A stretch of DNA of 24,493 nt, taken from positions 1 to 24,493 of IMG/VR virus record IMGVR_UViG_3300009788_000290; one strand, written 5' to 3'. The position numbers and the translations under genes were made by a program. The DNA comes from a virus. Shown piece by piece: positions 1 through 21,680 of the stretch (positions within the stretch are counted from its first letter, which is position 1; each line of letters opens with the position of its first letter). The notes beneath the pieces are model-generated. The model saw only the letters and a program-made list of their open reading frames with translations, did not search any database and was not told the origin of the DNA.

Positions 1-3000
1 AAGAGTGTACAACGCGCTGCACGTGTGACTGGTGGAGCTGCTGGTGTTGGTGCACTGGCTGCTACTATGGAAGTTCCTGTAGATGCTGCCGAACAGTTAC
101 GTGAGAAGGGAGCTATCGATTACTCCCAAACAACTGACGCTGCACTAGCTGCTGCTGGTCTGTCTGTTGCTCTGGTCGGTGGTGTTCGTGGTATCGTTGC
201 TGGTACTAAGAAGGTGGCTGCGGATAAACAGCTTACTCAACTACTGGAGGAAGCAGAGACTGCTACACCAGATGACTTGGTAGATAATATTGCTCAACGT
301 GGTATTGATGAGCATGAACTTGTTCTTGACTCTAATAATAACCTAGTAGTTCAACGTTCTCTTGCAGATACTGAAACTGTTACTGATGTACGTGAGCAAG
401 CTTTGTTCACCCGTGCTAAGGATGAGTTAGTAGTTGAACAGACAGAACGGTTGGCTAATAAACTTCCTGAAGGTCAACGTGCTGAGCTAGGTCAACGTGC
501 TCTCGAACTCAAGGGACTTATCCCCAGCCTTTGGCAAACAGTACTAGACACTGACGATATCATGACTCGTCTTACTAGTGATACTGCGGTGATTGACCGT
601 GCTCAGCAGCCCTTGGTGGATGTTAAGGGCAACGTAGTCAATCGTCCCCTCACTACGCCTGAGACAGCTCAGATCTCCAACCGTACTATTAATCGTCAAG
701 ACCGTGACGTACGATCTGCACGTGGTAATGCACGTAAGGCGATGGAAGAATATCAGGTAGCTGCACAAGAGTTACGTGGTATTGAAGACACTCTCCTACG
801 TGATAGAGATATCGGTCTTGAGCTTGTACGTATCCAAGAAGGGCGTGTAGACCTGCAAGATGTTACTGAGATCCAGTCACGTGTTGATGAGATCAAGTCT
901 AACATGGGTCCAGATGATCTTAACTGGTTGGAACGTAGGCAAGCCTTACGTAATCAAGGCGAAGAAGCTAAGAATCCTCGTCTAATTAAACTGCTTGAGA
1001 ATGATCGACGTGGTTGGGAAGAGATGGGTATTGACCCTGAACCCCTAGTCGCTCAGCCCATGCCTAGCACAGGACTCCGTGCTCGTATGGACAACGCTTG
1101 GAACGCTATTGTTGATATCACCTTCGGTAAGTCTGTATCTCGTTTGAACAGTATGGCTAAGGCTTCACCTACTGGACGTGAGTTGTATAACATCTTCCGT
1201 CATGATGGTGAGTCTATCATGGTACAGCCCTCTCACTCCGACCGTGTGATCCAGTCAGCTGGTAAGTTTATGTCTAAGCTAGAGAATGGGCTTGATCCTC
1301 TTCGTACTAGCTTGGGCGGCTTCATGCGTAAGGCAGAGGCTCGACAAGTGTTGGATATCCTACGTGGTAGGAAAGACTTTGCTGTCACCCCTGAGGTACA
1401 GAAAACTGCTACTGAGATGCGTAAGATTCTTAATGAGTTCTTCGCGTTTGCTAAGAAGGCTGGGCATCCTGTAGGTTTCGTAGAGAACTATGTCCCTCGT
1501 GTATATAACGTAGGTAAGCTTAAGACCCCTGAGGTTGCTGCTCGTTTCAAGTCCTTGTTGGTCAGTAAGGGCCTCTCGATTGAAGAAGTCAACAAGACCT
1601 ACAACAAGATCATCCAACAGAGTGGTATCCTTGACTTCGATCCTAAGAAATTAAGTACTGAGCGTGTCTCTGCTGAGACCCGTCCTTTGGGACAACGTTC
1701 CCTTACTATGGTAACTGACCTAGAGCTTGAAGAGTTCTTGGTAAGTGACCTCTACCCTCTACTAAGTGACTACATCCATGCAGGTGTACGGAACATTGAG
1801 TTTACTCGTTCCTTTGGCACCAACGGTAACAAGCTTCATGACATGATCTCTCAGATCACGAAAGAACTTAATGCACAGAACCAGCCATTGGAACCTTTCG
1901 AACTCCGTCGTATCATCGACCTTGCTAATGCACTGCAAGGTACATACAACCAGATTGAAGGTCGCTTCTCTCAGTTGGCAATGTCTACTGCTGTTACCGC
2001 ACAACAGATCTTGTCTCTCCCACTAGCTCAGATCACTTCTCTGGTGGAGCCTTTCATTGGACTCTCTCGTACTCGAACCACATCGTGGGCTGAAGGTCTA
2101 GGTAAGGCTATGAAGAGTGCAGCTAACAGGTCTGTCCGTCGATTCTTTAATAAGATCCCGAAGGATGAGATCACACGTGAGGTGGAACAGCTTGGTCTGA
2201 TTATGCCTCATGCTAGTAATGAGTTCTTAGGTAACCTCTTCGGTGCTGAGATCAACAATAAGAAGTTGAACAAAGTATCTGGTGCATTCTTCCGTGCAAC
2301 TTTCCTTACCCAATGGACAGAGTTCGTACGGACTGCTGCTTTCCAAGCAGGTAAGTCTGACATCGTCAAGAGCTTAAAGGTCTTGTCGGATGGTGACACT
2401 GACTCTGTTCGTGGACGTGATGTCGCTCTTAATTTGAAAGAGTTAGGTCTAGATGTTCAAGAGGGACTCAAGTGGGTTAGCCAAGGTGCAGACACTAATG
2501 CATCTTTCTTCCAAAACAATATCAAGGATGCCGCATTCCGGCACACTAACGAAGTTATGGTACATCCTGATCCTACTAATCGCCCAATCATCTTCAGTAA
2601 TCCAAGACTGGCATGGTTTAACATGCTTCTGTCTTACCCCACCGTATTTAACAACACAGTACTGAAGGGTTGGATCACTAGGTTTGGTAAAGGCAGTGCA
2701 TTCTACAAGACAGAGCACGGCGTTAAGGTCGCTGCCAGTGTCTTGACCATGATGCTTGTATCCGATGCAGCTATCGGTCTTAAAGAGTTCGTTCGATATA
2801 GTGGTGAACAGAATCCTAACACCGTGAACCAGACTGAAGGTGAACGTGTGTTCCGTGCAGCTAACCATGCTGGACTTATGGGCCCTGCTGCTCTTGCAGC
2901 TGATATGTACTCAGGTGTGTTGTATGGTGGTGACGCCTTGACTTCTCGCCTTGGACCTTTGGCAGGTACCATCAACGACTTCGCAGTTGGTGTTGCTAAG

Positions 3001-3780
3001 CTACCAGAGGATGATGGTGACTCCTTGAAGAAGGCAGCTACCCGTATGTTCCCCTTCCTTAACCAGAATCAAGAGGCTAAGGACTATATCTATCGGAACG
3101 TACTGCGTGGTGGTCAAGCTACCCGTGCAATCAACACGAAGCCTATCGAGTTTGAATTGTTAGGTGATCCTAAGCGTCGTGACACCATTCCTCTGTTCAA
3201 TATCTCAAACCTCCCTAGTCCCCCTTCGGAGGAGGCAGTAGGTAGGCCTGCAGTAGAGGAGAAAGTCTCACCAGAGGCCTTACAGGAGCCCTCAGAGGCA
3301 CTTACAGAGCCTGATGTACCTGTTGAGGTAGACAGCTCCACTTCTAGTGCCTTTATAGACAGCACACGTGCGACCGTAGAGCAGATTGTTGCAGAAGAAG
3401 GTACGGAGATCACACCTAAGACTCTCCTAGCCATCACTTCTCTTGAGACAGGTTTTGGTAAGGAAGTTAAGGGAAACTCCTTCTTCGGTATCAAGGCTAG
3501 TCCTTCAGATGAGGATACAGTTACATTCAAGACTAAAGAAGCTGATGCTTCTGGTAAGTTGGTGAGTGAGACTGGTACGTTCAAAGCTTTCGATGACTTT
3601 ACGGACTCTGTTCGTGGAGCTATCGACTTCCTTGAGACTAACCCACGATACAGAGAAGCTATCTCTAAGGATACTCCGGGGCAACAACTCCAGGGTATTG
3701 CTGACGCAGGATTTGCTACTGACCCTGACTATGACAAGAAAGTTCTTAACTTACTTGACCAAATCAACAAGGAGGGCTAA
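1..3780 (+). CDS. Large internal virion (ejection) protein with C-terminal glucosaminidase domain; 5' end outside window
   Basis: The frame is open from base 1 (eight codons precede the GTG at 25), so this is the 3' part of a longer gene; at least 1259 residues are present. The body is helical and Ala/Gln/Glu-rich without cysteine-rich or membrane-dense regions, as in the big internal core proteins of podoviruses that are injected with the DNA. From about base 3361 the protein changes to a FlgJ/GH73-like glucosaminidase fold: a TPKTLLAITSLETGFG stretch with the likely catalytic Glu at bases 3445-3447, then NSFFGIKA and a DFTDSVRGAIDFL segment. This should cut peptidoglycan glycan strands during DNA entry. 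A Pro/Glu-rich linker (bases 3211-3350) joins the two parts. The next gene follows after 2 bases. The body is assigned by size and position only; the enzyme domain is seen directly. Confidence 0.85.
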   Translation, partial: KSVQRAARVTGGAAGVGALAATMEVPVDAAEQLREKGAIDYSQTTDAALAAAGLSVALVGGVRGIVAGTKKVAADKQLTQLLEEAETATPDDLVDNIAQRGIDEHELVLDSNNNLVVQRSLADTETVTDVREQALFTRAKDELVVEQTERLANKLPEGQRAELGQRALELKGLIPSLWQTVLDTDDIMTRLTSDTAVIDRAQQPLVDVKGNVVNRPLTTPETAQISNRTINRQDRDVRSARGNARKAMEEYQVAAQELRGIEDTLLRDRDIGLELVRIQEGRVDLQDVTEIQSRVDEIKSNMGPDDLNWLERRQALRNQGEEAKNPRLIKLLENDRRGWEEMGIDPEPLVAQPMPSTGLRARMDNAWNAIVDITFGKSVSRLNSMAKASPTGRELYNIFRHDGESIMVQPSHSDRVIQSAGKFMSKLENGLDPLRTSLGGFMRKAEARQVLDILRGRKDFAVTPEVQKTATEMRKILNEFFAFAKKAGHPVGFVENYVPRVYNVGKLKTPEVAARFKSLLVSKGLSIEEVNKTYNKIIQQSGILDFDPKKLSTERVSAETRPLGQRSLTMVTDLELEEFLVSDLYPLLSDYIHAGVRNIEFTRSFGTNGNKLHDMISQITKELNAQNQPLEPFELRRIIDLANALQGTYNQIEGRFSQLAMSTAVTAQQILSLPLAQITSLVEPFIGLSRTRTTSWAEGLGKAMKSAANRSVRRFFNKIPKDEITREVEQLGLIMPHASNEFLGNLFGAEINNKKLNKVSGAFFRATFLTQWTEFVRTAAFQAGKSDIVKSLKVLSDGDTDSVRGRDVALNLKELGLDVQEGLKWVSQGADTNASFFQNNIKDAAFRHTNEVMVHPDPTNRPIIFSNPRLAWFNMLLSYPTVFNNTVLKGWITRFGKGSAFYKTEHGVKVAASVLTMMLVSDAAIGLKEFVRYSGEQNPNTVNQTEGERVFRAANHAGLMGPAALAADMYSGVLYGGDALTSRLGPLAGTINDFAVGVAKLPEDDGDSLKKAATRMFPFLNQNQEAKDYIYRNVLRGGQATRAINTKPIEFELLGDPKRRDTIPLFNISNLPSPPSEEAVGRPAVEEKVSPEALQEPSEALTEPDVPVEVDSSTSSAFIDSTRATVEQIVAEEGTEITPKTLLAITSLETGFGKEVKGNSFFGIKASPSDEDTVTFKTKEADASGKLVSETGTFKAFDDFTDSVRGAIDFLETNPRYREAISKDTPGQQLQGIADAGFATDPDYDKKVLNLLDQINKEG

Positions 3781-7336: not shown

Positions 7337-7751
7337 TGAGCCATTCCTCTGGTATAAGCTTGTCAGCGTACCTCCAAATAACACCTTTGAACGCCCCACG
7401 TGCCTTGCCATCACATATATCAGCATACGTGGTCTTACTTCCTTTACGGATTCTAGCTTTAGATCTGGTAAATACGAAACGGATATCTATCTCGGGATGC
7501 TGTTCCCTAATGAGCAGATGTTTCTTTCTGTCATCGCTGTCCCAAATTCCTTTGGTCTCAACGACGACAGTCTTACCAGTAGCAGTAGTGAGGACGAAGT
7601 CTGGTGTGTACTTGTGGTAGCTCTCTGGTATAGTATAGACAATCTTTTTATCAGAAGGTTCATACTCATACCGAACTTTCTTTTTACTTAGCTGCTTTGC
7701 AACTGCCGACTCCAGACCGGACCTGTAGCTCGCTGACTTCCTTCTTCGCAT
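7329..7751 (-). CDS. T7 endonuclease I-like Holliday junction resolvase
   Basis: A 140-residue protein closely resembling T7 gp3. It resolves branched DNA, trims replication intermediates and helps to degrade host DNA. The four PD-(D/E)XK residues are visible: E14 in SGLE, D51 in YTPDF, E65 and K67 in VETKG. Also present are the family hallmarks SDDRKKHLLIREQHPE (residues 72-87) and the C-terminal YADKLIPEEWL. ATG 7751 follows GGAGCTGAAGA. The start lies 68 bases inside the preceding coiled-coil gene, an unusually long overlap, but the T7 homology (YRSGLE within 15 residues of the start) supports it. T7 gp3 acts as a domain-swapped dimer; the same is expected. Confidence 0.95.
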   Translation of the reverse strand: MRRRKSASYRSGLESAVAKQLSKKKVRYEYEPSDKKIVYTIPESYHKYTPDFVLTTATGKTVVVETKGIWDSDDRKKHLLIREQHPEIDIRFVFTRSKARIRKGSKTTYADICDGKARGAFKGVIWRYADKLIPEEWLNE

Positions 7752-11772: not shown

Positions 11773-12291
11773 CAGTGAATCTCCGCCCATGTTTGTCCAA
11801 TCTTAGCATCAGCATCAAGAGGACAATTAAACTTGAGGATCTTACCAGCTTCGACTACACTCTGGATCATAAGTTCCTTGACTTGTTCAGCAACTTCGGG
11901 GTCACACTCGTACGTCTCTTCATCATGGTAGTCTAACACCTTGATTGCCCTGTCTTGCAGCCCCAATTCGTTGATCTTCTCGTGTAACCAGATACGTGCT
12001 GTCGTCATGACCACTGCACCTGCACATTGAAGCAATGTATTGAGTGCTTTGTTCTCTTCAATCTGCCCATACTTGTACCGCATCATGGTCTTACGTCCAT
12101 CGATGCCACGTAACCAACCACGTCGACTAGCTTTCCTTACAGACTTAATAAGTTTTTCGAGTCGAGGGTTAGCTCGCAGGAAAGATCGCTTAAGCGCTGC
12201 TCCAGCTGCCTTTTGTTGCTCAAGGCTACCGTCAGGTAGAACGATTGTGCCAAGCTTGGCTTCACCTGCTCCGTAGAGGAAGGCGTATATA
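11772..12291 (-). CDS. DNA polymerase family A, exon 2 (C-terminal palm/fingers)
   Basis: Reading starts in mid-codon at 12291 right after the intron's last G. It completes the split Phe codon and continues IYAFLYGAG, the rest of the O-helix (motif B) with the Tyr that selects nucleotides, through GWLRGIDGRK and ALNTLLQCAGA, to motif C (YHDEETYEC, catalytic HDE) and a C-terminus like T7 gp5. Together with exon 1 the spliced frame is 1953 bases, 650 residues, compared with 704 for T7. Without splicing this half would have no proper start; an internal ATG near 12086 exists but would make a useless fragment. Stop overlaps the next start. Confidence 0.93.
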
Positions 12292-12979
12292 CTTTGTGTT
12301 CGAGGAGAGACGCTACGCCCTCCCCCGTTCTCTTATGAACTGCTGCATGTTCCCATGCAGAACAGACTATATCATCACTTCAGACCCTTGGTCAGTTTCT
12401 CTAATAGCTTAGGTGCCATTAGAGCAGCTAACCAATGTGGGCCTGAAGGCTCACCGCTTCCACCACCAATAGCTTGTGGTGTACTCCCTTTCGGGATAGT
12501 CGTTGCACGTTCTTTACGATGCTCTAGAAGATAATCCACCAGCGAGTGGAGGTGGCCGACACTGTCGTCAACCATACCAAGCGCTATGTTGCAGTTAGCG
12601 CACAGTACTCCTCTTATCTCACCGGACTTGTGACAATGATCTACATGCCACCCTTTCTTAGAGTTAGATCTATCGGTGCCGCAGCACTTACAGACATTCC
12701 CTTGTTCTTCTAGCAGTCTGTCCCTCTCTTCGTGAGAGATTCCTCGCAAGACCTTGAAGGTTCGTTTACGAGATGCTTCCCTATCGCAGTCACGACAGAC
12801 TCTTTTGTTTGTTCGGAAGTATTTTTCAATGTACGGTTTACTGTCTCCGCACTTTCGACATTTTCTGTCTTCTTCCATAAGCCCTCCTGTTGTAGAGAGC
12901 ATCGTAAAGCTTCGCTCAGGATTACCTGGTCTAGGCTTCCCCTGAATTCAATGAGTTTATAGACTTCTATATGGTGTTA
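12292..12979 (-). other. Group I self-splicing intron in the DNA polymerase gene
   Basis: 688 bases. Exon 1 ends AGACTTT (last T at 12980) and this pairs with GAAGTCT just inside the intron, giving P1 with the required terminal U-G pair. ATATA directly before that G pairs with the first exon 2 bases TATAT (P10). The intron ends in G (12292). The classical core is present: GGTAATCCTGAGCGAAGC (12926-12909) for the P4-P6 side and GATGATATAGTCT (12376-12364) for P7. Joining the exons restores KTFIYAFLYG exactly as in T7-type polymerases. DNA polymerase introns at this motif are known in SPO1-like and T7-like phages. It holds an HNH endonuclease gene. Confidence 0.93.
12375..12878 (-). CDS. Intron-encoded HNH (endonuclease VII-like) homing endonuclease
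   Basis: 167 residues from ATG 12878, which has a near-perfect AGGAGG before it; the open frame begins 24 bases earlier without such a site. Two zinc knuckles (CRKCGD and CRDCD; then CKCCG and CANCN) flank the HNH core HVDHCHKSGEIRGVLCANC (about residues 80-98), matching recombination endonuclease VII-type HNH proteins. These cut intronless alleles and spread the intron. The C-terminal 45 residues (Gly/Pro-rich then a helix) are not part of the fold and may bind target DNA. The stop codon overlaps the intron's 3' core (TGATGATATAGTC), as is common for intron ORFs. Confidence 0.9.
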   Translation of the reverse strand: MEEDRKCRKCGDSKPYIEKYFRTNKRVCRDCDREASRKRTFKVLRGISHEERDRLLEEQGNVCKCCGTDRSNSKKGWHVDHCHKSGEIRGVLCANCNIALGMVDDSVGHLHSLVDYLLEHRKERATTIPKGSTPQAIGGGSGEPSGPHWLAALMAPKLLEKLTKGLK

Positions 12980-14412
12980 AAAGTCTTGGCCTGGTCACGT
13001 GTGGACAGTCCAGCCATTTCTTGGTTATGGGTGTGAACATCTCCGTTGAGGATGACATCAGTGTATACTGGGTCATTAATGTAGTGAGCGAAACACCTGA
13101 GTTCAATACCCGCAGCGTCTCGTCCAACAAGAACTTTTCCAGGTGCAGCTCGGAATAAGTCTCGCATTTCAGTTCCAAGAAAGACAGGCTGTGACTTAGG
13201 AAAGTAGAGCAGTTCGTGAGTTTCTTTATCTGAGCTGGCTTTAGGTACATTAGCTACCACCCTATGTCTCATGCGGCCTGTTGGTGTACCCTGTGGGTTA
13301 GCGCTGGCTGCAATTCTGTGATCTTCTCTTACATGACCAACCCAGCCAGTGATCTGACTGCGTCTATGAGAAGCCATACTCCTACGCTTAAGCTTATCCC
13401 CCAACCCAGTAGGCAGTGAATCAAAGGAATCAGGAGTGAGCTTAGGAGATGTACGTAGTGGCTTACCTGCTTCATCGAAATCATTTTTGCTGTAGTTCCA
13501 CTGTGTAGGTACCCAACCCATGCCGTCTAGCCAAGCTTTAACTTGCTTATCACTACCCAGATTAAGAACATTCCACTCCACTCGAGAGAACGGGCCAGAC
13601 ACCAGATCACAGTCAGTATCGAACCAATCCATAACTGCTTTAGTGTAGTCCCCATTCTTTTTAAATGGTGCATTGAGGGACACTCCCTTTTGCTTAGGTG
13701 TGGGCGGTACTTCAGCTAGGATATCGTCCTCAATACCCCCGATGTAGTCCTCTAGTATCTCAAGTAGATTGGTAGCTGATTCAGTGTTGAAGTAACAGCC
13801 ATTCTCTTCTTGGATGTGCATGATCTTTGCTGACTCATGCTCATTCCACATGGCTTGTGACCAGTCATTAGGTCCGTATGCGTTTGAATCAAAGATTGAG
13901 TAGGAAGGGTTGATGATATCAGCTTCTTTCTGTAGTCGCTGATAGATGAGGCATTGTATCTCCACGTCTTCTGCACAACGGTGGAGCATTTCCATGGAGA
14001 ACACTGACCAGTCCGTGTGATCCGGCTTCCATCTGCCGAGTCGCATACCCCAAGCTTCTACACTATGTGGGCCTGCTCTCACTCCCTCTACTCGAGGGCG
14101 GTCAGGGTTAAGGTGACGGGACATAACAAGGGTATCGATGATGATAACCTCTGGCTTAGGTTCCCAACCGTACATCTTCTTAAGGAAGGGTAGGTCGAAC
14201 GTTAGCCCGTTATGCGCGATGATGGTGGTACATCTGTTTAGGAATTGTAGTGCATCTTCCATCCAGGGAAATGTCGGGTATCCATCCGATACTTTATTCC
14301 CTGAGTGAAACTTGTATACTTCCCCGGTATCAATATCTTTAGCTACAAGACAGTGCATCTGTGTAGCTTTGTGAAGCAATCCATCTGCTTCTATGTCAAT
14401 CATTACTCGCAT
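12980..14412 (-). CDS. DNA polymerase family A, exon 1 (exonuclease domain and start of polymerase)
   Basis: ATG 14412 with GGAGGA upstream (a second ATG 9 bases on is possible). 477 complete residues plus two bases of a Phe codon. The 3'-5' exonuclease motifs are clear: Exo I IDIEADGLL (D6, E8), Exo II IIAHNGLTFDLPFL, later Exo III area around DVEIQCLIY. The polymerase domain includes motif A (GRDAAGIELRCFAHY) and the start of motif B, RDQAKTF, where the intron cuts. Unspliced RNA would add only N-T-I and stop. T7 gp5-like; in T7 the host thioredoxin is the processivity factor, and whether this shorter enzyme keeps that insertion cannot be told here. It replicates the phage genome with the primase-helicase 1 kb upstream. 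Confidence 0.95.
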
Positions 14413-19285: not shown

Positions 19286-20422
19286 CTAGGCTGCAGCATT
19301 GCGAAGCCTTGCAGCTTCAACACGCTGGTCCCTCGTATCTCGGAACGTTTTCCGATAGTTCGCAGTAGCGCGGGCCAGGCGACGAGACTCAAGAGCGAGA
19401 GGGCACTCAGTATCCTGCTTCACAATGGAAGCCTGATGAGTAGGCTTGGTAGCCTTCTTGATTCGAACACTGGCATCGGTAGCATTTTCCATGAGGTATT
19501 TATCACGGCAATAAATCTCTTTACCATTACGTAATACTGCCACTGACATCATGACTGTGCCACGAGATAGAGATTGCCGCATTGCTTTCTTTGCATGAGC
19601 CTGTACCCGCTTCTCACGGCGTACCTGCTCGGTATTACTGAACGATTCAACCAGCTTGGTCTTACCACGTACACTCATGGTGTGATGATAAGGCTCGAAG
19701 CTGTGACCAGGACCATTACGACTAGCAGGAACTGCATGGTCGTTACTATAAGACCCGGTATGGGTGTTGCGGAGGAGGTCTTCACGATTTTTCCCACAGT
19801 TGCCTCCATGTGTATGGACCTTGTCCTTCGGCTCACTCGGCATGTGTTCTACCGAAGATAGGTCACGACACTGTTCTTCACGCTCTCCTCGTGGGTCCAT
19901 AGGTTCCACAGGAGAAGACTTTTTATTACGGATTGTTGTACCCCCGTTCCGGCCAGCCGGCTCGAGGACTTGACCTAACACATCGTAGGGCTTGTTCGGT
20001 CTGTTCTTGTGATGTAGTGCAGGTTCCATATGTGCATTGCAAGAAGGGTTGTGTCGCTCACGACGGCGAGGTGTCACATACGCAGGATCATTCCGAGTTA
20101 TCGGATTAACATCGTACGGACATGGGCCTGGGTGTTCCAACACGGCATGTTTTTCCGGAACATTCCCACGCTCATAGCTCACTATCAGAGATTGCATCAG
20201 CTTGTTAACTGACCCACGCTTCTTCTCACGTCGCTTCTCACTGGTCTTGCGACCAGTACCAGAACCTTGGGGTATCTCAAGATCACCTTGCTTCTTCAGC
20301 ATCTGTCGTTTGACCTCTGCCATTCGAAGGTTAGCCTTACGAAGCGCCTTGGCTGCCCGTTGTTGTTCATGACGTATCTTACGGGCCTCCTTCTTGGACA
20401 TCGCTTCGTATTTCCTTTTCAC
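19286..20422 (-). CDS. Large basic protein of unknown function
   Basis: 378 residues from GTG 20422, chosen because AGGAG stands eight bases before; an ATG lies 21 bases downstream. Very basic throughout. The first 75 residues form a Lys/Arg/Ala/Gln helix (ARKIRHEQQRAAKALRKANL; KTSEKRREKKRGS), the middle is Pro/His/Asn-rich and low in predicted structure (HPGPCPYDVNPITRNDPAYV; RNGPGHSFEPYHH), the last 120 return to basic helices (EQVRREKRVQAHAKKAMRQ; RLARATANYRKTFRDTRDQR). Could coat DNA or RNA or be a virion scaffold. It follows directly downstream of the large structured RNA region, 70 bases after the tRNA-like fragment. No family recognised. Confidence 0.75.
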   Translation of the reverse strand: MKRKYEAMSKKEARKIRHEQQRAAKALRKANLRMAEVKRQMLKKQGDLEIPQGSGTGRKTSEKRREKKRGSVNKLMQSLIVSYERGNVPEKHAVLEHPGPCPYDVNPITRNDPAYVTPRRRERHNPSCNAHMEPALHHKNRPNKPYDVLGQVLEPAGRNGGTTIRNKKSSPVEPMDPRGEREEQCRDLSSVEHMPSEPKDKVHTHGGNCGKNREDLLRNTHTGSYSNDHAVPASRNGPGHSFEPYHHTMSVRGKTKLVESFSNTEQVRREKRVQAHAKKAMRQSLSRGTVMMSVAVLRNGKEIYCRDKYLMENATDASVRIKKATKPTHQASIVKQDTECPLALESRRLARATANYRKTFRDTRDQRVEAARLRNAAA

Positions 20423-20489
20423 GAGTACTACTCCTATCAAGTTAATCAGAATGATTCACGTTTTAACTGGCCCTCACTGTGACCCCTCC

Positions 20490-20545
20490 CTTTACCTGTG
20501 TCGGGATTCGAACCCGAACCTCTTAACCACAGAGCCACCGCAGTA
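20490..20545 (-). ncRNA. tRNA-like T-arm fragment
   Basis: On the - strand TCGGG-TTCGAAT-CCCGA (20517-20501) is a perfect tRNA T-arm. It is stacked on CTGTG/CACAG (20532-20528 with 20500-20496), and a D-arm-like CTCT-AGAG hairpin precedes it. There is no anticodon arm of normal form, and only a few acceptor pairs can be made. It is not a functional tRNA as read; it may be a decayed tRNA or a structural T-arm mimic of the RNA region around it. Confidence 0.4.
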
Positions 20546-20703
20546 TGGTAAGAGTTGTCCCCGTCGGATCTGAGGCGATCCTTTGTACACTAGGAAGAAG
20601 TAGTGAGGGCTGCTGGTCCGTGGGTGCTTAACTCCCACATGATTCCAGATGTTGTAGCGGTGACACAAACTGAATCGGCTGGTCGTATACCATACAAGGC
20701 ACA
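20546..20703 (-). ncRNA. Folded noncoding stretch between tRNA-Trp and tRNA-like fragment
   Basis: No gene with a ribosome site. Hairpins on the - strand include GGATC-GCCTCA-GATCC (20581-20566) and GTGGG/CCCAC (20638-20634 with 20624-20620). ACCTGT at the tRNA-Trp 5' end can also pair with ACAGGT near 20495-20500, which would fold this stretch into one domain. Probably part of the same transcript as the large folded region upstream. Confidence 0.35.
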
Positions 20704-20776
20704 CTATCCCGAGGGGACTCGAACCCCCAACATCCGGTTTTGGAGACCGGCGTTCTGCCAATTGAACTACAGGTCC
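20704..20776 (-). tRNA. tRNA-Trp (CCA), imperfect acceptor stem
   Basis: Arms in order on the - strand: GGACCTG, TA, D-stem GTTC-AATTGGCA-GAAC, G, anticodon stem-loop CCGGT-CTCCAAA-ACCGG (anticodon CCA), variable ATGTT, T-arm GGGGG-TTCGAGT-CCCCT, then CGGGATA and G. D, anticodon and T arms match bacterial tRNA-Trp almost base for base. The acceptor stem pairs at the four inner positions (one G-U) but the outer three contain two mismatches and a wobble, so charging may be poor or the 5' end may be wrong. No CCA is encoded. Confidence 0.7.
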
Positions 20777-20781
20777 GATTC

Positions 20782-21243
20782 ATTGTTACGAATTTCACGT
20801 ACGCAGAGGTAGTACCTTCTGTTATGTGCCTCCAGCTTAAACCAACGGGATCCACTCGGCATGTCATTCCCGTAAGGTAGTGAAGTTAATCACCGGCACT
20901 CTGCATTATGACTCATTTCATGAGGGACCAGCGTTTCACCACTGGCAGGTGTTGACGTGAGACGCCTCCCTATTAACCCTCCACAACTGTAGCACATGGC
21001 TAGTATGCTACGAGATACCTCATTAGCTATGTCGCACGGTATCTCCTATCAATTTCCCACAAGCCCGGTTGTCTCAGTGATTCACCCTGATGTAACAGGT
21101 AACACCGTTTCTCCGTATTCTATTACGGCTTGCCCTCCCCTGTCCCTTCGGAGCCAACGATTATAGGTACCCCCATCAGATCGTGGAGGGTGTGATCATC
21201 ACCCTCTACTGGAATAGTACCGTACGTTGGGAGGCATGGCTCC
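20782..21243 (-). ncRNA. Large, highly folded noncoding RNA candidate
   Basis: No coding frame is supported over 460 bases. At least ten helices can be read on the - strand: CCAACG/CGTTGG (21230-21225 with 21159-21154) enclosing GGTAC/GTACC (21221-21217 with 21170-21166) and a 7-bp, 7-base-loop hairpin (21206-21186); CAAGC/GCTTG with an inner CCGTA/TACGG hairpin (21132-21060); GAGATACC/GGTATCTC, 8 bp (21045-21012); GTAGCA/TGCTAC (21011-20989); CCAGTG/CGCTGG (20945-20928); CTCAT/ATGAG (20924-20912); GCAGA plus GTGCC against GGCAC plus TCTGC (20904-20803); ACGGGA/TCCCGT (20873-20845). Multibranch nesting, length and a flanking phage tRNA recall GOLLD and ROOL RNAs; family membership is not established. 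Confidence 0.55.
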
Positions 21244-21245
21244 AG

Positions 21246-21680
21246 TTAAACTATGAATTCTCTTGCCAATAGGATGTCCGACTTCACCATCAGGAATGGA
21301 TCGTTCGGCCTTACCTTACCGGAGACCCAGACAGTAGCTATCTCAAGAGATCTCTTCTCTGCATCAGCCTCACCATCCCCACGGAATGAGATGTCTCTCT
21401 GCTCCGCATGGATAAACTCATGTGCCAACACAACATACATATGAATGAGACTTGACCTCTTGTGGATATGATAACTGATCAGCGTACACCCCTGCTTACA
21501 GGAGCAACTACCGACAGGAGAACTGTCCCACATATTCTCACGCTTCCAAACCTCCACCCTTACATCAGTGGTGATCTCAAGGAGAGCATGAAGATACCTG
21601 CAGTATTCTTCTAACAGGTGCCAGTTCTGCACTACGTCACTCTTGAGATGCTTACTGACACGTCTTACTATCTTCAGCAT
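21246..21680 (-). CDS. HExxH metallopeptidase-like protein
   Basis: 144 residues, ATG 21680 with GGAGATATTGTT before it. It has VVLAHEFIHAEQ (zinc ligands H87 and H91, catalytic E88) and 13 residues later GEADAEKRS, whose E104 is a likely third ligand, the HExxH+E arrangement of gluzincin-type proteins such as ImmA/IrrE and related phage peptidases. Three cysteines (about C59, C61, C65) in GSCSCKQGC may form another site. No signal peptide, so cytoplasmic. Possible role: cutting a host or phage repressor or modifying host proteins early on; the target is unknown. Its stop lies directly before the large folded RNA region. Confidence 0.8.
   Translation of the reverse strand: MLKIVRRVSKHLKSDVVQNWHLLEEYCRYLHALLEITTDVRVEVWKRENMWDSSPVGSCSCKQGCTLISYHIHKRSSLIHMYVVLAHEFIHAEQRDISFRGDGEADAEKRSLEIATVWVSGKVRPNDPFLMVKSDILLAREFIV

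What the first reader, a model, noticed from the sequence alone, without database searches (positions are those of the whole stretch)
20490..21243. A 750-base folded RNA region with embedded tRNA-Trp: candidate giant phage RNA
It is the longest gene-free stretch of the window and is packed with complementary segments: ten or more helices, nested and multibranched, including 6-8-bp perfect ones. It contains a tRNA-Trp and a tRNA T-arm fragment, and lies between a metallopeptidase gene and a basic protein gene. Very large ornate RNAs (GOLLD, ROOL) in phages occur beside tRNAs and have about this length. Either it is a divergent member or an undescribed class.
Basis: partly seen in the sequence, partly recalled or inferred. 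Interest (0 to 1): 0.85.

Follow-up and report, generated by a model that had tools for sequence, protein, structure and literature searches.

The report
Phage noncoding RNA with tRNA-like parts
An 800-base gene-free stretch of an uncultured Zobellviridae-like phage carries a tRNA-Trp body with a broken acceptor stem plus a second tRNA-like fold, and related phages carry other tRNA mimics at the same spot, so it is probably a noncoding tRNA-mimicking RNA rather than a member of the known giant phage RNAs.

Summary
The gap is real: about 805-823 noncoding nt on the gene strand, with a tRNA-Trp body and a second tRNA T-arm. Folding beats chance on the gene strand only (z about -3), and that signal lies in the last ~335 nt; the 5' 470 nt does not differ from shuffles. 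GOLLD and ROOL models do not match. The tRNA is not ordinary: its core is 90% identical to a phage tRNA-Trp, but the acceptor stem keeps 4 contiguous pairs and lacks CCA.

At the matching place, phage GX1-k141_326647 (Zobellviridae) and contig L003 have gaps of similar length with tRNA-like modules: a covarying module with arms in the order T-arm, CUCCAAA (Trp anticodon) loop, D-arm, and a conserved 3' tRNA-like domain on a ~25-bp helix (87% identical; 3 doubly compensated, 0 broken pairs). The window's own RNA cannot be aligned to them, so its homology rests on position, length and architecture. L074, also syntenic, lacks the elements.

Best reading: a divergent tRNA-mimicking noncoding RNA, perhaps a decoy or scaffold for tRNA-binding proteins. 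A decayed tRNA locus remains the main rival. In passing, L003 and GX1 carry a second ~860-nt RNA with strong covariation and no Rfam match; that is the better giant-RNA candidate.

The parts
20441..21245 (-). noncoding locus (RNA-A position); probably runs to ~20423 if the downstream gene starts at GTG 20422
   Evidence: ORF list; fold z -2.9 to -3.2 on this strand; similar-sized gaps at the same relative position in L003 6680-7407 and L070 11359-12121
20705..20775 (-). tRNA-Trp body (anticodon CCA); acceptor stem reduced to 4 contiguous pairs, outer 3 positions not a helix, no CCA
   Evidence: ARAGORN; RF00005 52 bits, model positions 4-67 of 71; 90% over 60 nt to Erwinia phage Kwan tRNA-Trp, which has an intact 7-bp acceptor and CCA
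20671..20782 (-). possible clamp TGAATCGG/CCGATTCA around the tRNA body
   Evidence: 8 perfect pairs; in the MFE of a 145-nt local fold, but p about 0.02 in the full-length ensemble: uncertain
20470..20610 (-). 3' domain: 19-bp closing helix enclosing two hairpins and a T-arm, cloverleaf-like
   Evidence: outer 9 pairs p 0.98-1.0; 3' part z -3.2 vs +0.5 on the other strand
20566..20581 (-). hairpin GGATC..GATCC at the D-arm position of the 3' domain
   Evidence: 5 pairs, p 0.99-1.0; the D-arm role is inferred from position
20520..20554 (-). long hairpin at the anticodon-arm position of the 3' domain
   Evidence: first 5 pairs p 0.95-1.0; aligned by the relatives' TLS model, weakly
20501..20517 (-). 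tRNA T-arm TCGGGTTCGAATCCCGA
   Evidence: 20501-20560 is the best R2 hit in 6.5 kb, 9.3 bits, E 0.41
20441..20459 (-). GTGAATCATTCTGATTAAC, where relatives have Fur-box-like TTGATAATCATTCTCA
   Evidence: direct reading
21246..21680 (-). upstream gene, 144 aa with HEFIH (metallopeptidase-like)
   Evidence: ORF; no Pfam/PHROG match, no relative in phages
19286..20440 (-). downstream basic protein gene (384 aa from TTG; GTG at 20422 more likely)
   Evidence: ORF; L074 has a basic 317-aa ORF right after its gap, no detected sequence similarity

Best explanation
The gap encodes a noncoding RNA, or a noncoding segment of a longer transcript, that mimics tRNA: a tRNA-Trp body plus a 3' cloverleaf-like domain on a long helix, both built into the RNA instead of being released as working tRNAs. 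Shown: tRNA sequences in a noncoding locus, a broken acceptor, above-chance folding of the 3' part, and tRNA mimics at the same locus in two relatives with compensatory changes. Inferred: that the window RNA is their homologue, and that it acts by presenting a tRNA elbow and Trp anticodon arm to proteins, most likely as a decoy for a tRNA-cutting host nuclease or other tRNA-binding factor, or as a scaffold. The decoy step alone I would put at about 0.2-0.25.
For: tRNA body conserved while the acceptor is lost; four IMG/VR tRNA-Trp genes with the same D-arm, plus Kwan and RGL3, keep paired acceptors by reading. Relatives: T-arm/CUCCAAA-hairpin/D-arm module in L003 and L070, 17 pairs, 5 doubly compensated, 0 broken in a hand alignment; 3' TLS, 42 pairs, 3 double, 0 broken, z -7.7. 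L070 second module 31.8 bits to YrlA, E 1e-6 per record; same order in L078. Local order is kept among relatives. [quoted passage not shown]
Against: No alignable relative of the window RNA; L074, 64% identical in primase and syntenic, has 450 nt without tRNA elements, z +0.2. Arm order differs: D-ASL-T in the window, T-ASL-D in L003/L070. The 5' 470 nt is not more structured than chance. No expression data, promoter or terminator signal.
Confidence: 0.45

Rival explanations
1. A decaying tRNA locus: the phage lineage once carried tRNA genes here and the window keeps a tRNA-Trp that has lost its acceptor and a fragment of another tRNA.
For: Broken acceptor, isolated second T-arm, L074 without tRNA elements at the same place; other phages have ordinary tRNA arrays in such gaps.
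Against: The tRNA core stays 90% identical to a phage tRNA-Trp; 3' domain z -3.2 on the sense strand only; in relatives the modules show compensatory changes and a T-ASL-D order that decay would not produce.
Confidence: 0.3
2. A working tRNA-Trp gene with a poor acceptor stem, beside an unrelated structured leader of the basic-protein gene.
For: ARAGORN and RF00005 accept it, 52 bits; noncanonical acceptors can be edited in some systems (general knowledge).
Against: Outer acceptor pairs absent; comparison tRNA-Trp genes have intact acceptors.
Confidence: 0.12
3. A giant ornate RNA of the GOLLD/ROOL type, possibly a cage with a tRNA in its linker.
For: Length; GOLLD linkers sometimes contain tRNAs and the RNAs lie near phage tRNA islands (PMC12286853).
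Against: No GOLLD/ROOL match; 5' 470 nt not more structured than shuffles; no covariation for the window RNA.
Confidence: 0.06
4. A tRNA-like processing signal: RNase P/Z or other enzymes cut the polycistronic transcript at these folds.
For: It lies between co-directional genes; no intrinsic terminator found.
Against: Acceptor broken in the window and extended to ~25 bp in relatives, neither a normal RNase P substrate (inference).
Confidence: 0.07

Closest known systems
YrlA bacterial Y RNAs (RF02553)
   Same: tRNA-like module with T-arm, closed hairpin and D-arm in permuted order on a closing helix, in relatives L070, L003 and L078
   Different: Scores far below the gathering cut-off (31.8 and 17.8 vs 69), none for L078; no TROVE/Ro60 gene in the records searched; the window's module has normal tRNA order
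GOLLD (RF02032)
   Same: Phage noncoding RNA of ~800 nt; [quoted passage not shown]
   Different: No model match; no evidence of a conserved ornate fold in the window
ROOL (RF03087)
   Same: Large phage RNA found near tRNAs
   Different: No model match
phage tRNA-Trp (e.g. Erwinia phage Kwan)
   Same: 90% identity over 60 nt, CUCCAAA anticodon loop
   Different: Acceptor stem disrupted, no CCA, embedded in a longer noncoding region
viral tRNA-like structures
   Same: tRNA-like fold as a domain of a longer RNA (general knowledge)
   Different: DNA phage, internal position, no CCA end

Membership tests
GOLLD (RF02032) | match to the covariance model | tested here: not met
   no match at E<=10
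ROOL (RF03087) | match to the covariance model | tested here: not met
   no match at E<=10; no positive control rang
GOLLD/ROOL | elaborate covarying fold over the whole length | tested here: not met
   5' 470 nt z -1.3; no covariation with relatives
GOLLD/ROOL | homo-oligomeric cage | not testable with these tools
   needs cryo-EM
functional tRNA | cloverleaf with conserved D, anticodon and T arms | tested here: met
   52 bits, ARAGORN
functional tRNA | 7-bp acceptor stem and CCA acceptance | tested here: not met
   4 contiguous pairs, no encoded CCA; CCA addition not testable
YrlA Y RNA | match above the gathering score | tested here: not met
   window 11.9 bits, L070 31.8, L003 17.8 vs 69
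YrlA Y RNA | permuted T-hairpin-D module | tested here: not met
   window: none by descriptor (the descriptor also misses the L003/L070 modules with 3-bp T-stems), normal order by reading; present in L003, L070, L078
YrlA Y RNA | Ro60/Rsr partner encoded nearby | tested here: not met
   no TROVE match in six records
RNA-A of L003/L070 | sequence/structure match of the 3' TLS | tested here: inconclusive
   best hit of R2 in 6.5 kb falls at 20501-20560, only 9.3 bits, E 0.41

The most novel reading that the evidence does not exclude
A Zobellviridae-like lineage uses large noncoding RNAs assembled from rearranged tRNA arms (including a Trp anticodon arm in T-ASL-D order) as tRNA decoys or scaffolds, and the window carries a divergent member of this class.
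Probability: 0.25. Interest if true: 0.85.

Novelty: new variant of a known kind. Interest (0 to 1): 0.55.

Why it matters
Phage-encoded tRNA mimics could explain how lytic phages withstand tRNA-cutting defences or handle tRNA-binding proteins. Arms of one tRNA in two different orders at one locus would be an unusual case of RNA rearrangement. The locus also led to a second, strongly covarying 860-nt phage RNA without an Rfam match, a concrete candidate for a new large-RNA class.

Tried and rejected
Rfam at E 10 on the region: only tRNA plus a chance snoRNA. Searches with the metallopeptidase and the basic protein found no relatives in viral contigs, nor the peptidase in phages. Genome contigs gave only distant primases. 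Exact patterns of the TLS, module 1 and RNA-B found only the L003 contig. The tRNA-body pattern found four contigs, ARAGORN calling tRNA-Trp there. My impression that L076's 1.4-kb gap is an RNA-B homologue was not supported. Erwinia phage Prophecy (first hit) is an ordinary tRNA array. The Y RNA/Ro60 pathway lost weight: no TROVE gene found.

Full report
What is there. The window is an IMG/VR virus record of a podovirus with T7-like replication genes; the best primase match among annotated phages is phage GX1-k141_326647, Zobellviridae (61%). Its replication-side genes run on the - strand. Between a 144-aa HExxH gene (21246-21680) and a basic protein gene (19286-20440) lies an 805-nt gap.

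tRNA content. ARAGORN and Rfam find a tRNA-Trp at 20705-20775; a weaker tRNA match with T-arm TCGGGTTCGAATCCCGA lies at 20493-20536. A strict T-arm descriptor finds only these two in the record, both strands. The tRNA core is 90% identical over 60 nt to tRNA-Trp of Erwinia phage Kwan, but the similarity stops at the acceptor. Kwan has AGGGAAG/CTTCCCT and CCA; the window keeps only CCTG/CGGG in its seven-position stem. Comparison genes L160-L163 and RGL3 show paired acceptors on reading.

Folding. On the gene strand the gap is more stable than dinucleotide shuffles (z -3.2 and -2.9), not on the other strand (-0.8 and -1.0). The signal is in the last 265 nt (z -3.2; +0.5 antisense); the first 470 nt give -1.3, against coding controls of -1.5 and -2.0. 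The 3' domain 20470-20610 has a 19-bp closing helix around two hairpins and the T-arm.

Relatives. Primase searches gave L002 (75%), L003 (63%), L070 = GX1 (61-62%), L073, L074, L076, L077 and L078. L003 6680-7407 and L070 11359-12121 are gaps of 728 and 763 nt before a homologous small membrane protein. They share a module (78% over 50 nt) and a 3' TLS (87% over 145 nt). The module reads T-arm, hairpin with CUCCAAA loop, D-arm, closed by GUCUAC/GUAGAC or GUGAGG/CCUCAC: 17 pairs, 5 doubly compensated, none broken, in a hand alignment. The TLS has 42 pairs, 3 double, none broken, alifold z -7.7 against column shuffles. Outside these, RNA-A shows no clear conserved structure (5' z -0.9, middle -1.4). 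An automatic alignment of module 1 alone gave only z -1.7. L070 has a second module matching YrlA at 31.8 bits (E 8e-5 in 901 nt; cut-off 69); L078 has the same order by descriptor, without a YrlA match. The descriptor had 4 hits in 0.7 Mb of shuffled sequence and 27 in 3.2 Mb of other loci, so a single descriptor hit is weak evidence.

Is the window RNA the same thing? Position, length, a Trp anticodon loop and a 3' T-arm domain on a long helix agree. Sequence does not, alignment to L003 or L074 gives z near 0, and the TLS model's best hit in 6.5 kb, although at the right place, has only 9.3 bits. L074, with a basic-protein gene after its gap, has 450 nt without tRNA elements. Homology is plausible, not shown.

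Known families. GOLLD and ROOL do not match. YrlA-like RNAs are the closest structural relatives of the modules in L003/L070; no TROVE gene was found. [quoted passage not shown]

Mechanism. I favour a tRNA-mimicking RNA acting on tRNA-binding proteins; decoy against a tRNA-cutting nuclease is the most specific version, inferred only. A decayed tRNA locus is the main rival.

RNA-B. L003 2898-3749 and L070 8015-8872 (~860 nt) lie ~2.5-2.9 kb upstream of RNA-A, at 61% identity over a 526-column stretch. Consensus folding is far beyond column shuffles (-132.9 vs -70.7 +- 5.1, 50 double changes vs null maximum 43; core z -7.7; coding control -1.5). The reverse strand also scores high (-6.7), so strand is not settled by this test. 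No Rfam match at E 5. A core model found no third member in the loci searched.

Noticed in passing
L070 8015-8872 and L003 2898-3749: Second large RNA (RNA-B, ~860 nt) conserved between two Zobellviridae-like phages with many compensatory changes and no Rfam match at E 5; a stronger giant-RNA candidate than the window's gap.
   Followed up: partly
window 12343-12989 (-): Group I intron (56 bits) with an endonuclease VII/HNH ORF at 12375-12902, apparently splitting the DNA polymerase gene after ...RDQAKTFN.
   Followed up: no
L003 ~7374-7395, L070 ~12086-12107, window 20441-20459: Fur-box-like TTGATAATCATTCTCA directly after the 3' tRNA-like domain in both relatives; the window has GTGAATCATTCTGATT at the same place.
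   Followed up: no
L076 1378-2789: 1.4-kb gap with two good T-arms (2001-2017, 2591-2607) and weak tRNA matches; not an RNA-B homologue by model.
   Followed up: partly
L078 2485-3060: Noncoding stretch starting with a T-hairpin-D module overlapping the stop of the upstream ORF; 2461-3060 folds with z -2.9.
   Followed up: partly
L003 3480-3550: tRNA-like piece near the RNA-B 3' end with GAGGGTTCGAGTCCCTC T-arm, 15.6 bits to the tRNA model, absent from L070 RNA-B.
   Followed up: no
L073 ~400-600: AT-rich TATATATA insert in the noncoding stretch after the basic-protein gene.
   Followed up: no
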